Part shown: one piece after another, positions 9,232 through 29,818 of the stretch
How positions within the stretch are numbered: position 1 is the first letter of the stretch
Layout: each line of letters begins with the position of its first letter
NCBI GenBank assembly: GCA_024641735.1
Contig: JAHECN010000011.1
Coordinates: 1 to 35,056 of the forward strand
Source: Gemmatimonadota bacterium
GTDB taxonomy: Bacteria > Gemmatimonadota > Gemmatimonadetes > Gemmatimonadales > GWC2-71-9
Reading direction: 5' to 3'
Length of the DNA: 35,056 bases
The notes under the pieces: model-generated
Databases searched by the model: none
Seen by the model: only the letters and a program-made list of their open reading frames with translations
What the model was told of the DNA's origin: nothing
Program-made: the position numbers and the translations under genes

Positions 9232-9391
9232 GTTACAAGAGGACGGGAAAGCCGTCCCACCCCAAGCCGAAGGACGTGGCAAAGGCGGTCTGAGAGTCAT
9301 AAGCATCCGGTCCCATGGGACCGCGGTGCACCTCTTTTGACACCCTGCCAAACGCGGGGTGTCTTTTTTTGCTCGAACGGAGGAACTGCCA
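9232..9391 (+). promoter_or_regulatory. infC leader, probable attenuator
   Basis: The transcribed leader holds three structures: a hairpin GGACGG/CCGTCC (9241-9257), the palindrome GGTCCCATGGGACC (9309-9322) and an intrinsic terminator (9339-9370) only 22 bases before the infC start. CACCCC at 9258-9263 could pair with GGGGTG at 9356-9361 and so act as an antiterminator. A terminator inside the leader of infC-rpmI-rplT is reminiscent of L20-controlled attenuation known in Firmicutes. Whether L20, Phe-tRNA or another signal acts here cannot be told from sequence. Confidence 0.6.
9339..9370 (+). terminator. Intrinsic terminator in the infC leader
   Basis: GACACCC (9339-9345) pairs with GGGTGTC (9357-9363) and is followed directly by seven T. 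This is the only textbook Rho-independent terminator in the window. It is oriented so that it would stop transcription before infC, which suggests conditional read-through. Confidence 0.85.
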
Positions 9392-9913
9392 CTGTCCAGC
9401 TTTGATCGAGATCGTCGCGTGCGGGTCAACCGGCAAATCCGAATCTCGCCTGTGCGAGTCGTGACCGGTGAGGGTGAGCAGCTCGGTGTCCTTCCGCTTG
9501 AGGAAGCGCTGGCGGCTGCAGCGGAGCGGGGCCTCGATTTGGTTGAGGTTGCTCCGATGGCCCGACCCCCCGTGGTCAAGATCATGGACTACGGCAAGTA
9601 CAAGTTCGAGGAAGCGAAGGCGGCGCGTGCAGCCAAGAAGAAGCAGCATGTGATCCACCTGAAGGAAGTGAAGTATCGTCCGGGGATCGACGATCACGAT
9701 TTTGACTTCAAGACCCGCCACGCCCGGGAGTTCCTGGGTGAAGGGAACAAGGTCAAGGTCACGATGATGTTCCGTGGGCGTCAGATGGCCCACACCGAGC
9801 TCGGCAAGGCCGTGCTCGATCGCGTGGCCGCTGCCCTGGTCGATGTCGGCAAGGTCGAGCAGGACGCCAAGCTGGATGGACGCAACATGATCATGGTCCT
9901 CGCGCCGAAATAA
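9392..9913 (+). CDS. infC: Translation initiation factor IF-3
   Basis: The protein has 173 residues when started at CTG 9392. IF-3 features are present: the N-terminal [14 protein letters not shown], the linker region [29 protein letters not shown], and the C-terminal domain with [47 protein letters not shown] (9379-9384) is spaced ideally for the in-frame CTG at 9392. No in-frame ATG, GTG or TTG lies near it: the ORF-track GTG at 9359 is inside the terminator stem and the GTG at 9419 lacks an SD and would cut into the domain. Non-AUG starts on infC are known from other bacteria (AUU in E. coli), where IF-3 represses its own synthesis by rejecting them. It acts on the 30S subunit. Confidence 0.95.
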
Positions 9914-25595: not shown

Positions 25596-25678
25596 GCTCG
25601 GGTGGCGAAATGGCAGACGCAGGGGACTTAAAATCCCCAGGGGGCAACCCCGTCCGGGTTCGAGTCCCGGCCCGAGTA
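25596..25678 (+). tRNA. tRNA-Leu (anticodon UAA)
   Basis: This 83-base class II tRNA has acceptor GCTCGGG/CCCGAGT, D-arm GCG...CGC, anticodon stem GGGGA/TCCCC with loop CTTAAAA (anticodon TAA), a long variable arm GGGG-GCAA-CCCC, and T-stem CCGGG/CCCGG with loop TTCGAGT. Discriminator A is at 25678; CCA is not encoded. The first acceptor pair is G-U rather than G-C. A CATATT -10-like box lies 11 bases upstream. The pilin gene starts 22 bases after it. Confidence 0.95.
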
Positions 25679-25700: not shown

Positions 25701-26141
25701 ATGCGACAGAGGACGCAGGGGTTCACGATCATCGAGCTGCTGGTGGTCATGGTCATCATCGGCATCCTCGCGCTACTGGCGATTCCACGACTGAGTCAGA
25801 CGCGTGGACGTGCCCTGCGTGCTTCAATGATCAGTGACCTCAAGAATGTGGTGACGAGTCAAGAAGGATTCTATTCGGTCACGAACGACTTTGCGGGGGG
25901 CTTCGCCAGTGGCCCGGAAATCCAGGCGACCGGAGGAGCTGGTCGACTCGCCTTTACCCCGAGTCCGGGAAATGTGCTCGTCATTACCTATCACTCCAGC
26001 ACCGGTCCGGGGTGGTCTGCGGTGGTGACCAATCCCCTCGTGACGCAGTCCGGTGCGTCGACTTGTGGAGTGTTCGTTGGGAGCCCTGGATACTCACCTG
26101 ACGTGAAGGTCACCAATCCGGGCACACCCACCTGCTATTGA
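25701..26141 (+). CDS. Type IV pilin / pseudopilin
   Basis: The protein has 146 residues. The class III prepilin signal is textbook: MRQRTQG|FTIIELLVVMVIIGILALLAIP, with cleavage after G7, N-methylatable F8 and E12 at +5. A variable C-terminal domain follows, with a Cys pair C122/C145 enclosing the probable D-region loop. GGAG is upstream of the ATG. It would be processed by PilD and assembled into a pilus or pseudopilus. Separation of only 22 bases from the tRNA suggests shared transcription. The downstream paralogue and the nearby ATPase operon fit a type IV pilus locus. No PilD, PilC or secretin is in the window. Confidence 0.93.
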   Translation: MRQRTQGFTIIELLVVMVIIGILALLAIPRLSQTRGRALRASMISDLKNVVTSQEGFYSVTNDFAGGFASGPEIQATGGAGRLAFTPSPGNVLVITYHSSTGPGWSAVVTNPLVTQSGASTCGVFVGSPGYSPDVKVTNPGTPTCY

Positions 26142-26187: not shown

Positions 26188-26616
26188 ATGGGCATTTCTT
26201 CTCCCACCGCCGCTCGACCCTGGACCTTCCGCCTGCGGGTGCTCACGATCGCCGGCCTGCTGAGCGTGGTCGGCCTCATCGGGAGCGCTGCGTTAGCACG
26301 GCGTGCGGACACGGATGCTCGCGCAACGCTGAAGTCCGACTTGCAACGATTTGACGCGGCGCAGCGCGCCTGGCAGGCCCGGTATGGTGACTTCGCCCAG
26401 TCCTTCGACGCGAAAGGGTCGCCGACAGCGATCGCCTTCACACCATCTCCTGGGGTCACCTTCAAGTTCGAGAGTTTCTCCCCGCAGGCCTGGTCCGCGA
26501 CGGTCACCGGCGGCAGCGACATGGTGGCGCCTCGGATGTGCGGGATCTTTCGTGGTGAGGGCCCCATCGCCCCGCATCGTGCCCTGATCACCGAGGGCGC
26601 CATCGCTTGCTGGTAA
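26188..26616 (+). CDS. Pilin-derived membrane protein lacking a prepilin cleavage site
   Basis: The protein has 142 residues. The C-terminal two thirds match the preceding pilin: KSDLQRFDAAQRAWQARYGDFA against ISDLKNVVTSQEGFYSVTNDFA, the shared AFTPSPG, WSAxVT and CGxFxG, and a terminal Cys-aromatic. The Cys pair C118/C141 has the same 23-residue spacing as C122/C145 in the pilin. The N-terminus, however, is MGISSPTAARPWTFRLRVLTIAGLLSVVG: a helix without GFTxxE, so PilD processing is not expected. It probably stays as a single-pass inner-membrane protein with a pilin-like periplasmic domain. SD is weak. Confidence 0.82.
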   Translation: MGISSPTAARPWTFRLRVLTIAGLLSVVGLIGSAALARRADTDARATLKSDLQRFDAAQRAWQARYGDFAQSFDAKGSPTAIAFTPSPGVTFKFESFSPQAWSATVTGGSDMVAPRMCGIFRGEGPIAPHRALITEGAIACW

Positions 26617-26623
26617 GGAGCGG

Positions 26624-27280
26624 TTACTTCCCGCGGAGTTGATCGCGGCTCGCGCCCAGAAAGCTGTCCGCTGCCATGCTGCTCGCGAGTTCGAGCTCGA
26701 GTGGGCCATCGCGCCCCTCAAGGCGGTATTGCGTCCTCAGTTCCACGACAAGCGCCAAGGAAGTGTCCGCCACGCCGGCCTCGGCCAGGAAGGAGGGCAT
26801 CCGACCACGGCTCCGCAGAAACTCCTGCACACGGCCATCCGCCAACCACAGCCCATAGCGAAGCGACGCTTCGGCGTTCTCCGGTTTCGGTGACCAGGGG
26901 TGATCCACGGGTCCCTGCACGATGGCGGGACGAATGAGCAGCAGCGCCGCGACGACGAGCCACACTGACAAGGCACCCGCAAGGAGAGGGGAGGAGGCAC
27001 GGCGCGGGGCGGCAGGGAGCGCGACCCGCTCTGCCGCGCGCCGTCCAGCTTCCGCGATGACCTGATCCTGCGCCGCGGCCAGGGACGGTGACGCGAAATG
27101 CTTTTCGATGTCGATTTCGTAAACCGGCACCGCCAAACTTTCTGGGGGAGGCACGAACGCTGTGGTTGGCTCTGGCTGCTTCGCAATCAGGGGTGATGCG
27201 TCGGTCGGTGTCGGCGGAGCGGGTGGGGCGGGGACCTGTGGCGCAGCGGCCTTCTTCGACCTCGTGCGCTTTTTAGCCAT
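26624..27280 (-). CDS. Single-pass membrane protein of the pilus ATPase operon, unknown function
   Basis: The protein has 218 residues from the ATG at 27280, overlapping the cheY-like stop by 8 bp; the ORF-track start is inside the response-regulator gene. A Lys-rich start (MAKKRTRSKKAA) precedes a Pro-rich linker (to about 50), a helical segment and one transmembrane helix (about 98-120; LLAGALSVWLVVAALLLIRP). The periplasmic domain contains ENAEASLRYGLWLADGRVQEFLRSRGRMPSFLAEAGV and ends in FLGASRDQLRGK. No known family. Its position makes a role in pilus assembly or signalling likely. It converges on the pilin-like gene with a 7-bp gap. Confidence 0.78.
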   Translation of the reverse strand: MAKKRTRSKKAAAPQVPAPPAPPTPTDASPLIAKQPEPTTAFVPPPESLAVPVYEIDIEKHFASPSLAAAQDQVIAEAGRRAAERVALPAAPRRASSPLLAGALSVWLVVAALLLIRPAIVQGPVDHPWSPKPENAEASLRYGLWLADGRVQEFLRSRGRMPSFLAEAGVADTSLALVVELRTQYRLEGRDGPLELELASSMAADSFLGASRDQLRGK

Positions 27281-27647
27281 TCTGTGGCGCCTCGCCCGCC
27301 AGGGCGCGGGCGACCTGCTCGGGAAAGTTCCGGATGTCGATCGGCTTGGTGATGTAGCCGTCGAAGCCCGCCTCCATGGCACGCTCGCGGTCACCCTGCA
27401 TCGCATGCGCCGTCAGTGCCACGACGTGCAGGTCCCGGTATTCCGAGGCACGGATTTCGGCGAGCAACTCAAATCCATCCTTGCCCGGCATTTGGATGTC
27501 CATGAGCACCAGATCAGGGAGCTTTGCTGCCAGTGTCTCGAACAGTTCTTCACCACCCGGGATTCCCACGACCTCATGCCCCTTCATCGTGAGCAAGGTG
27601 CGAAACAGCTTCATGTTGTCTGGGCTGTCTTCGACAATCAGAATCAT
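27273..27647 (-). CDS. CheY-like single-domain response regulator
   Basis: The protein has 124 residues, a complete receiver domain. Acidic pair VEDSPD, phosphoacceptor Asp in LVLMDIQMPGKDG, Thr in VVALTAHAM and Lys in YITKP. There is no output domain. The start overlaps the stop of the ATPase-receiver fusion (ATGA), so both receivers are co-translated. It may signal to the pilus motor. The cognate kinase is not in the window. It resembles the DivK/CheY group of stand-alone receivers (AHAM segment). Confidence 0.93.
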   Translation of the reverse strand: MILIVEDSPDNMKLFRTLLTMKGHEVVGIPGGEELFETLAAKLPDLVLMDIQMPGKDGFELLAEIRASEYRDLHVVALTAHAMQGDRERAMEAGFDGYITKPIDIRNFPEQVARALAGEAPQNG

Positions 27648-29818
27648 CCGTCGGACTCCATACGAGTACGCTTGAGAACGGCCCGCACTCTCGCGACGAG
27701 GGAGCGGGGTTGGACTGGCTTGGTGAGGTAATCCTGTGCGCCGAGCTCGAGGGCATGCATTTCCGTGTCGTCGGTTCGCGCCGTGAGCATGATGACGGGA
27801 ATGGATGCGGTGCCAACCGCGGCACGCATCTCTTCCAAGACGCCGAGGCCCGTCAGGCGAGGCATGTCGTGGTCGAGCAGGACCAAGTCGATGGCCTTGG
27901 TCTCGATCGCCTCGAGGGTGTCGAGGCCATCGGCCGCTTCGATAACCAGAAAACCATCCCGTTCCAGCACCGTCTTCACCAGCCGGCGCATCTGCGCATC
28001 GTCGTCCGCGAGGAGGATCGTCGCACCCGTGCCGTCCGCCGCCGCCGTCCCGCGCGTGGCTCGAGCCCCTGATTCCGCCACGAGTGCTGGGGTTGCCGAC
28101 CGGGCCGTGGCTGCATTCGTCTGATCAAGCGTCTCACCGAGGACACGGTGGATCTCGGCAAAGGAGGTCTGCCCATTCCAGAATCGGATCAGGCCACTCT
28201 CCCACAGCGTTCGCATGCCATGCGGACGCGCTGCGTCCAGGATGGCCTGCTGCGGGGCCCCTGCTTCGATGAGTCCGGAAACAGCACCCTCGATCGGCAG
28301 CAACTCAATCACGGCGAGGCGCCCCTTGAATCCGCTTCCGCCGCAGGCCTTGCAGCCAGCCCCCAACTGTGGGGTGAAGGTTCCCGTGTACCCCTCAGGG
28401 GGGCGTGCGTGCTCGGGAATGTCCTCCAGCGCGACCGGCGCCGCGCATCCTGGACAGATGCGTCGCACGAGTCGCTGGGCGACAACTCCCCGCAAGACCG
28501 TCCCGATCTTGAAGGAGTCGACACCCATGTCGCGCAGCCGCACGATGGCGGAGACGGCATCGTTCGTGTGCAGCGTGGAAAAGACGAAGTGCCCTGTCAA
28601 GCCGGCCTGGATGGCGATGGTGGCGGTTTCGCCATCACGAATTTCGCCGACCAGAACGATGTCCGGGTCCTGCCGAAGCACAGAGCGCAGCGCGGTCGCG
28701 AAGGTGAAGCCCTGCGCCTCGTTGACCTGCATCTGCGAGATGCCGTCGACGTCGTACTCGACGGGGTCCTCGACGGTGACGATGTTCACCTTGCCGGTGC
28801 GCAAGTGATTCAGCACCGCGTACAGCGTCGTGGTCTTGCCGGATCCCGTCGGGCCGGTGACAAGGACCATCCCCTCGCGGTGGCCAAGCATGCGCATCAA
28901 CACTTCCTCTTCCTCGATCGGCAGTGCCAAATCGGGGATGGAAGCGCGGAGATTGGACTTGTTCAGAATGCGGATCACCAGCTTCTCGCCGCGCCGCGCG
29001 ACCGGGGCGGTCGCGACCCGCATGTCCACCTCATGACCGGCCACGCGAATGGAGCTCCGTCCATCCTGCGGCGTCATCGAGTTGGTCACGTCGAGGCCAG
29101 CAATGATTTTCACGCGCCGGACCAAGGAAGGCCCCGCGGCCTCGGGAAGGCGCATGACCTCCTTGAGGATGCCATCCACGCGGTACCGCACGATGACGTG
29201 CACCCCTTCCATTTCGGAGTGGATATCACTCGCGCCAGCCTGCACGGCGTCTGCGATCATCGCATCGACGAGCTTCGACATCGGCGCGTCGAGCGCAGGA
29301 TCACGCTCCTCAGCCTCCTCCTGTCGCTCGATCTCGATTGCCGAAGGCGCCAATCCCAGGAGAAGGCGATTGATCGAGTTCTCCGGCCGATAGAACTCGT
29401 CCAGTTTCTCACTGATCGCGCTCGGGGACGCCACTTCCAGCGTGACATCCCGGCCAGTGAGAAAGCCGAGTTCTTGTTCCGCGTTCATGTCGCGCGGGTC
29501 GGCCGTCGCGATGCGCACGCTCTTCTCGTCCATCGCGATCGCGACCACGTGATACTTCCGGGCTGCCACTTCGGGCAAGACGGCCGTCGCGCGCGCCTCC
29601 GCGGTGCTCAAGTCTGCGATCGGGACGCGGAAGCGCCTGGCCAATTCCGCACAGATGACGGCGTCGGTCGCGAGCCCGGTCTCCACGACCGAACGCCACA
29701 TCCGCTGGTTGCGCATCGAGGCGAGCACCGAGACTCGCTCTGCCGGGACGATTCCGGCTTCGACCAGATAGGGGCCGAGCCAGGCATCGGGAGCAGTCGC
29801 GGAGTCAGGAGCGGTCAT
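27644..29818 (-). CDS. PilB/GspE-type assembly ATPase fused to a C-terminal receiver domain
   Basis: The protein has 724 residues. An N-terminal MshEN-type domain (about 10-150; IADLSTAEARATAVLPEVAA) is followed by an NTD (ASDIHSEMEGVHVIVRYRVDGIL) and the ATPase core: Walker A GPTGSGKTTT (about 322), Asp box TVEDPVEYDVDGISQMQVN, Walker B DIVLVGEIRD (about 383), His box LTGHFVFSTLHTNDA. A CPGC...CKAC zinc knuckle lies at about 454-490. After a linker, residues about 597-717 form a receiver domain: ILLADDDAQMRR, phosphoacceptor Asp in LVLLDHDMP (about 648), Thr in VIMLTART and Lys in YLTKP. Such ATPases normally end near residue 570. The fusion suggests pilus extension or secretion controlled by phosphorylation. 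No frameshift is seen. Confidence 0.94.
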   Translation of the reverse strand: MTAPDSATAPDAWLGPYLVEAGIVPAERVSVLASMRNQRMWRSVVETGLATDAVICAELARRFRVPIADLSTAEARATAVLPEVAARKYHVVAIAMDEKSVRIATADPRDMNAEQELGFLTGRDVTLEVASPSAISEKLDEFYRPENSINRLLLGLAPSAIEIERQEEAEERDPALDAPMSKLVDAMIADAVQAGASDIHSEMEGVHVIVRYRVDGILKEVMRLPEAAGPSLVRRVKIIAGLDVTNSMTPQDGRSSIRVAGHEVDMRVATAPVARRGEKLVIRILNKSNLRASIPDLALPIEEEEVLMRMLGHREGMVLVTGPTGSGKTTTLYAVLNHLRTGKVNIVTVEDPVEYDVDGISQMQVNEAQGFTFATALRSVLRQDPDIVLVGEIRDGETATIAIQAGLTGHFVFSTLHTNDAVSAIVRLRDMGVDSFKIGTVLRGVVAQRLVRRICPGCAAPVALEDIPEHARPPEGYTGTFTPQLGAGCKACGGSGFKGRLAVIELLPIEGAVSGLIEAGAPQQAILDAARPHGMRTLWESGLIRFWNGQTSFAEIHRVLGETLDQTNAATARSATPALVAESGARATRGTAAADGTGATILLADDDAQMRRLVKTVLERDGFLVIEAADGLDTLEAIETKAIDLVLLDHDMPRLTGLGVLEEMRAAVGTASIPVIMLTARTDDTEMHALELGAQDYLTKPVQPRSLVARVRAVLKRTRMESDG

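What the first reader, a model, noticed from the sequence alone, without database searches (positions are those of the whole stretch)
27644..29818. Type IV pilus/secretion ATPase fused to a response-regulator receiver, with a co-translated CheY
The ORF is continuous from a MshEN domain through a complete PilB/GspE ATPase with zinc knuckle to a receiver domain with an intact phosphoacceptor Asp, Thr and Lys. A second receiver starts within its stop codon. Assembly ATPases of this class normally end after the ATPase domain (established knowledge), so direct phospho-control of the motor, with the second receiver as competitor or partner, is a reasonable hypothesis. This is the best candidate here for a little-described system.
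Basis: partly seen in the sequence, partly recalled or inferred. Interest (0 to 1): 0.6.

Follow-up and report, generated by a model that had tools for sequence, protein, structure and literature searches.

The report
Pilus motor with built-in phosphorylation switch
A PilB-type ATPase, the kind of enzyme that builds type IV pili, here carries a conserved, intact phosphorylation switch as its tail, an arrangement found across the bacterial group Gemmatimonadota, so sensor kinases could turn a pilus motor up or down directly.

Summary
The 724-aa ORF at 27644-29818 (-) is MshEN + complete PilB/GspE ATPase + flexible linker + intact receiver (REC). A single-domain receiver starts inside its stop codon (ATGA). 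It is no artefact: the fusion was verified in 39 Gemmatimonadota loci, which form one clade apart from the ordinary PilB of the pilB-pilT-pilC operon. The REC catalytic residues are kept in all 39, and REC is under purifying selection like the ATPase. The genome has a second fused paralogue.

(1) The c-di-GMP motif of MshEN is destroyed in the fused clade but largely kept in the ordinary PilB, so phosphorylation seems to replace c-di-GMP as input. (2) In a sister subfamily the fused ATPase directly follows PAS-HisKA-HATPase-REC-REC-Hpt kinases in six loci.

The co-translated CheY as a dedicated partner or competitor is weakened: it persists where the ATPase-REC gene is gone, and elsewhere pairs with a sensor kinase.

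Most likely this is an auxiliary, phospho-gated extension motor for the genome's single type IV pilus machine. That function is inferred, not shown. New variant of a known kind.

The parts
27644..29818 (-). PilB-class ATPase with C-terminal receiver, 724 aa
29381..29632 (-). MshEN domain as matched by Pfam (residues 63-146); the four-helix N-terminal half lies upstream (residues 14-63) and has lost the c-di-GMP motif
28145..29290 (-). T2SSE ATPase core (residues 177-558) with Walker, Asp-box, His-box and tetracysteine motifs
28019..28144 (-). Variable, mostly disordered linker (residues 559-600)
27683..28018 (-). Receiver domain (residues 601-712), phospho-acceptor D649 at 27872-27874
27273..27647 (-). 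Single-domain CheY/DivK-like receiver, 124 aa, start codon inside the ATPase stop codon (ATGA)
26624..27280 (-). 218-aa predicted bitopic membrane protein of unknown family; overlaps the CheY stop by 8 nt
26188..26616 (+). Pilin-like protein lacking a recognisable prepilin cleavage motif, homologous over its C-terminal part to the pilin at 25701
25701..26141 (+). Type IV pilin with N-terminal methylation motif

Best explanation
The gene encodes an auxiliary PilB-class pilus-extension ATPase gated in cis by a tethered, phosphorylatable receiver. A histidine kinase, probably through an Hpt phosphotransfer domain, phosphorylates D649. The receiver, on a flexible leash of some 30-90 residues at the edge of the hexamer, then changes how it contacts the ATPase (or the receivers of neighbouring subunits) and so raises or lowers ATP turnover or docking on the cell's single PilC platform. 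The MshEN module keeps its fold but has lost the c-di-GMP site, so in this paralogue phospho-input replaces the second-messenger input that the ordinary PilB appears to use. Shown here: architecture, conservation, common ancestry, selection, loss of the c-di-GMP motif, single platform and secretin, kinase-Hpt linkage in the sister subfamily, pilin linkage. Inferred: phosphorylation, the sign of the effect, docking on the shared platform, and a pilus phenotype.
For: Intact ATPase and REC residues. One clade of 39 fused proteins, 100/99. Receiver as constrained as the ATPase. c-di-GMP motif lost in the fused clade, largely kept in tail-less PilB. Six sister-subfamily loci encode a PAS-HisKA-HATPase-REC-REC-Hpt kinase directly upstream of the ATPase-REC gene. 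Pilin genes lie next to the window-type gene and next to the sister type in two loci. One PilC protein and one secretin per genome in genus-mates against two to four PilB-class ATPases. Precedents: EmvR, a single-domain regulator, binds PilB and lowers its ATPase activity in an Asp-dependent way (PMC11973254); two extension ATPases serve one pilus in A. baylyi (PMC11656802).
Against: No kinase gene next to the window copy or the own-genome R1 copy. The fused gene is never in the pilBTC operon in the loci examined. No phosphorylation, binding or phenotype data exist. Window-type genes are lost in some congeners, and receivers have decayed or been replaced by NUDIX in other lineages, so the arrangement is dispensable.
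Confidence: 0.55

Rival explanations
1. The fused protein is mainly a signalling protein, not a pilus motor: the ATPase hexamer acts as sensor or scaffold whose nucleotide state, read together with REC phosphorylation, controls other outputs such as exopolysaccharide or c-di-GMP enzymes.
For: M. xanthus PilB regulates exopolysaccharide independently of pilus assembly, and an ATPase-deficient variant still signals (PMC5544727). R1 genes are orphans among housekeeping genes. R3 genes often sit with GGDEF, HD-GYP and REC genes.
Against: All catalytic residues are invariant in the fused clade, which a pure scaffold would not need. Pilins are linked to the window type and to some R3 loci.
Confidence: 0.22
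2. The receiver mainly controls where the motor sits (pole or membrane site) through protein-protein contacts, not its catalytic rate.
For: REC domains can act in localisation: deleting the FimX REC domain mislocalises FimX and pilus assembly (PMC11656802). A long flexible tether fits a recruitment handle.
Against: The FimX REC lacks the phospho-acceptor, whereas this one keeps every catalytic residue in 39 of 39, so phosphorylation is expected to matter. This does not exclude phospho-controlled localisation.
Confidence: 0.13
3. One reading: the co-translated CheY is a dedicated competitor or partner of the fused receiver.
For: ATGA overlap and a CheY gene directly downstream in all 13 window-type loci examined.
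Against: The CheY orthologue stays at the same site in G001, G006 and G009, which lack the ATPase-REC gene, and beside a 48-codon REC remnant in G022. In G036 and G058 it overlaps a HAMP-GAF-HisKA-HATPase kinase gene. So it is not dedicated, though it may share a kinase.
Confidence: 0.1

Closest known systems
PilB, type IVa pilus extension ATPase (Geobacter PilB 5zfr/5tsg; M. xanthus PilB 3jc8; Thermus PilF)
   Same: MshEN plus T2SSE core, tetracysteine, about 43% identity over the core; best sequence and fold match
   Different: C-terminal receiver added; c-di-GMP motif lost; encoded outside the pilBTC operon; scores below the NCBIfam PilB (477 against 675.65) and GspE (491 against 630.25) cut-offs
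EmvR-PilB pair of Xanthomonas oryzae (PMC11973254)
   Same: A receiver acts directly on PilB; Asp-dependent repression of ATPase activity
   Different: EmvR is a separate protein; here the receiver is covalently attached, and the sign of its effect is unknown
PixE (PATAN-CheY-like) and PilB1 of Synechocystis (PMC7690835)
   Same: CheY-like regulator binding a pilus extension motor
   Different: Acts in trans and has a PATAN domain
PilB/TfpB two-ATPase system of Acinetobacter baylyi (PMC11656802)
   Same: More than one extension ATPase for one pilus machine
   Different: No receiver is described for TfpB in that text; the window protein scores 397 bits against the TfpB cut-off of 850
MshEN-REC proteins noted in the 2016 MshEN survey (PMC5013675)
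   Same: MshEN in the same chain as a receiver
   Different: Mentioned in one sentence as a general domain association; no study of an MshEN-ATPase-REC protein is described there

Membership tests
PilB/GspE/PulE assembly ATPase superfamily (T2SSE) | Complete T2SSE domain with Walker A, Asp box, Walker B, His box | tested here: met
   395 bits against a 24.9 cut-off; invariant residues; fold
PilB/GspE/PulE assembly ATPase superfamily (T2SSE) | MshEN-type N-terminal domain and C-terminal tetracysteine | tested here: met
   MshEN 60 bits against 23.1; C455, C458, C489, C492
Type IVa PilB equivalog (TIGR02538) | Score above the curated cut-off | tested here: not met
   477 against 675.65 bits; GspE TIGR02533 491 against 630.25. 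The protein is PilB-like, not a member of either equivalog.
Type IVa PilB | Encoded with pilT and pilC | tested here: not met
   pilBTC holds the tail-less PilB in relatives; the fused gene lies elsewhere
Type IVa PilB | Powers pilus extension | not testable with these tools
   needs genetics; only pilin linkage and intact catalysis seen
c-di-GMP-binding MshEN ATPase | Two RLG...Q 24-residue motifs | tested here: not met
   Motif-I Arg is Trp in 37 of 39, Gln in 1 of 39; motif-II Gly is Trp in 36 of 39. Binding itself not measured.
Phosphorylatable response regulator (REC) | Acidic pair, phospho-acceptor Asp, Thr/Ser, Lys | tested here: met
   D606, D649, K700 in 39 of 39; T or S at 679 in 39 of 39
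Phosphorylatable response regulator (REC) | Is phosphorylated by a cognate kinase | not testable with these tools
   needs phosphotransfer assay
Phosphorylatable response regulator (REC) | Genetic link to a histidine kinase | tested here: inconclusive
   Not at the window locus or at R1 of the own genome; met in six R3 loci

The most novel reading that the evidence does not exclude
Gemmatimonadota evolved a whole family of pilus motors with exchangeable C-terminal signal modules (REC, decayed REC, REC-GAF, NUDIX), in which c-di-GMP gating was given up for direct phosphorelay gating; cells would choose between a c-di-GMP-driven PilB and one or two phospho-driven motors on a single pilus machine.
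Probability: 0.35. Interest if true: 0.72.

Novelty: new variant of a known kind. Interest (0 to 1): 0.52.

Why it matters
Two-component control of pilus motors is known through separate, trans-acting regulators. A covalent, intact receiver on the motor gives a one-protein system in which phosphorylation, ATP turnover and hexamer state can be measured together, and it predicts which sensor kinases steer pili. The presence in one lineage of a PilB with the c-di-GMP motif beside PilB paralogues without it but with a receiver makes the open question of why bacteria keep several extension ATPases directly testable.

Tried and rejected
Sequencing artefact or frameshift fusion: rejected (39 loci, variable linker always in frame, REC under purifying selection). 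Fusion unique to this strain: rejected. Degenerate ATPase or pseudo-receiver: rejected for the window gene. Dedicated CheY partner: weakened. An apparent 480-residue N-terminal extension in L036 is probably a spurious GC-rich open frame: it overlaps the upstream kinase gene, and Pfam finds no domain in that stretch. A plasmid search gave ordinary GspE/PilB only, with a separate regulator gene next to it in Acinetobacter. Distribution outside Gemmatimonadota could not be surveyed: whole-genome search accepts only its own genome handles as centres, and the one genome-contig scan returned a congener and a receiver-only hit. Fold of the third gene: the top three hits are type IV pilins but not significant (E 0.29 and above).

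Full report
Observation. The ORF at 27644-29818 (-) is 724 aa and reads MshEN, a complete T2SSE ATPase and a complete receiver. Walker, Asp-box, His-box and zinc cysteines are invariant among 28 homologues. The 124-aa CheY-like gene begins inside the stop codon, and a third, 218-aa gene overlaps the CheY stop by 8 nt, so the three genes look like one translationally linked operon. The predicted structure has a four-helix N-terminal bundle, the second MshEN half, the ATPase, a disordered tether at residues 564-593 and a compact receiver. Its nearest solved folds are PilB and GspE. None of the 60 best-matching solved chains listed is matched over both the ATPase and a receiver.

Origin and spread. 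The nearest named record, 72% identical, is a Gemmatimonadetes MAG. A search of 101 genomes found the same fusion in genus, family and order. In 39 loci the ORF runs unbroken into a receiver. In a phylum sample of 249 high-quality genomes at least 90 (counted from the listed matches, so a lower bound) have a match spanning ATPase and receiver, including 46 of 50 in the own family. The own genome has a second fused paralogue, 754 aa, alone next to a hisC-like gene.

Phylogeny. The fused proteins form one clade (100/99) apart from the ordinary tail-less PilB. There are three subfamilies, named here: R1, nearly universal in the own family and orphan; R2, the window type, beside aroA-cmk-rpsA with pilins; R3, often in signalling gene clusters. 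Within the wider superclade (99/99) the receiver has decayed in some lineages (L093 first gene, L095, L096), is followed by GAF in L098, and is replaced by a NUDIX domain in five genomes of family f2, in at least two lineages. NUDIX was confirmed by Pfam for L080 and L082; for L081, L083 and L089 it is read from the aligned C-terminus. In R1 loci L054 and L055 a separate NUDIX gene follows the ATPase gene.

The receiver is functional by sequence. D606, D649, K700 and P701 are invariant and T/S679 is kept in 39 of 39. dN is nearly equal for ATPase and receiver at similar dS (window against L010: 0.145 and 0.120, dS 1.3 and 1.2; L028 against L029: 0.007 and 0.012, dS about 0.37), while the linker is loose. 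dS values above 1 are near saturation and rough.

Lost c-di-GMP input. The MshEN c-di-GMP motif is two 24-residue RLG...Q units (PMC5013675). In the fused clade the motif-I Arg is Trp in 37 of 39 and never Arg, the motif-I Gln is present once, and the motif-II Gly is Trp in 36 of 39. In the ten tail-less ATPases compared, the four motif Gly are kept in 10 of 10, the Arg in 8 and 10 of 10, the Gln in 6 and 8 of 10. The fold persists. Binding was not measured, and imperfect motifs can still bind (PMC5013675).

Phospho-input. In six R3 loci (L056, L102, L103, L109, L114, L115) a PAS-HisKA-HATPase-REC-REC-Hpt protein is encoded directly upstream, in several overlapping the ATPase-REC start. That is a phosphorelay lacking only a final receiver. 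In L106 and L107 a REC-GGDEF gene takes that place. At R1 of G036 and G064 a hybrid kinase gene lies one gene away, on the opposite strand. The window gene itself has no adjacent kinase; the genome has three Hpt and seven GGDEF matches.

The CheY. A CheY gene follows the ATPase-REC gene in all 13 window-type loci examined. But in G001, G006 and G009 the block ATPase-REC, membrane protein, pilin2, pilin1 is missing between the 520-aa gene and aroA while CheY remains. G022 keeps CheY, with only the last 48 codons of the receiver recognisable. In G036 and G058 CheY follows, and in G036 overlaps, a HAMP-GAF-HisKA-HATPase kinase gene. So CheY has a life of its own. A shared kinase is the likely link, which is inference.

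Machine. Genus-mates carry one PilC protein and one secretin but two to four PilB-class ATPases. In the window genome the pilBTC locus is missing except for a PilC fragment at a contig end, probably an assembly gap. The fused motors therefore either share the single machine, as PilB and TfpB do in A. baylyi (PMC11656802), or serve signalling, as shown for M. xanthus PilB (PMC5544727). Pilins next to R2, and next to R3-type genes in L092 and L112, and intact catalysis favour the former.

Known precedents. The single-domain regulator EmvR binds PilB and lowers its ATPase activity in an Asp-dependent way (PMC11973254), and PixE is reported to interact with PilB1 (PMC7690835). A 2024 review of PilB control does not use the word receiver at all (PMC11656802). 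The 2016 MshEN paper notes MshEN with REC in general terms. I found no functional study of a receiver-tailed PilB in the literature held here; most subscription papers are not covered.

Verdict. The fusion is real, ancient within the phylum and under selection. It most likely works as a phosphorylation-gated auxiliary extension motor. The wiring is inferred, not shown.

Noticed in passing
L080, L081, L082, L083, L089 (G138, G173, G071, G063, G263): PilB-like ATPases of the same superclade carry a C-terminal NUDIX domain instead of the receiver; in R1 loci of other families (L054, L055) a separate NUDIX gene follows the ATPase-REC gene.
   Followed up: partly
L098:626-3343 (G063): A 905-aa relative has MshEN, ATPase, a weak degenerate receiver and a GAF domain in one chain.
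   Followed up: partly
L093:854-5425 (G234): Two ATPase-REC genes in tandem; the first has a badly degraded receiver.
   Followed up: partly
window 26188-26616 and 26624-27280; L044, L045: A pilin-like protein without a recognisable prepilin motif faces a bitopic membrane protein; in G004 and G007 a second copy of the membrane protein gene pairs with the true pilin in the same way.
   Followed up: partly
L119 about 9367-9510 (G022): Only the last 48 codons of the window-type receiver are recognisable, next to intact CheY, membrane-protein and pilin genes: the ATPase-REC gene is decaying there.
   Followed up: partly
L094:2-601 (G161): An ORF with partial MshEN plus receiver but no ATPase lies just upstream of an ATPase-REC gene.
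   Followed up: no
all fused loci; window residues W13 and W41: Two tryptophans replace c-di-GMP motif residues and are almost invariant (37 and 36 of 39), suggesting that the old nucleotide site was reused for something else.
   Followed up: no
window 25596-25678 (+): tRNA-Leu (taa) gene just upstream of the pilin gene at 25701.
   Followed up: no
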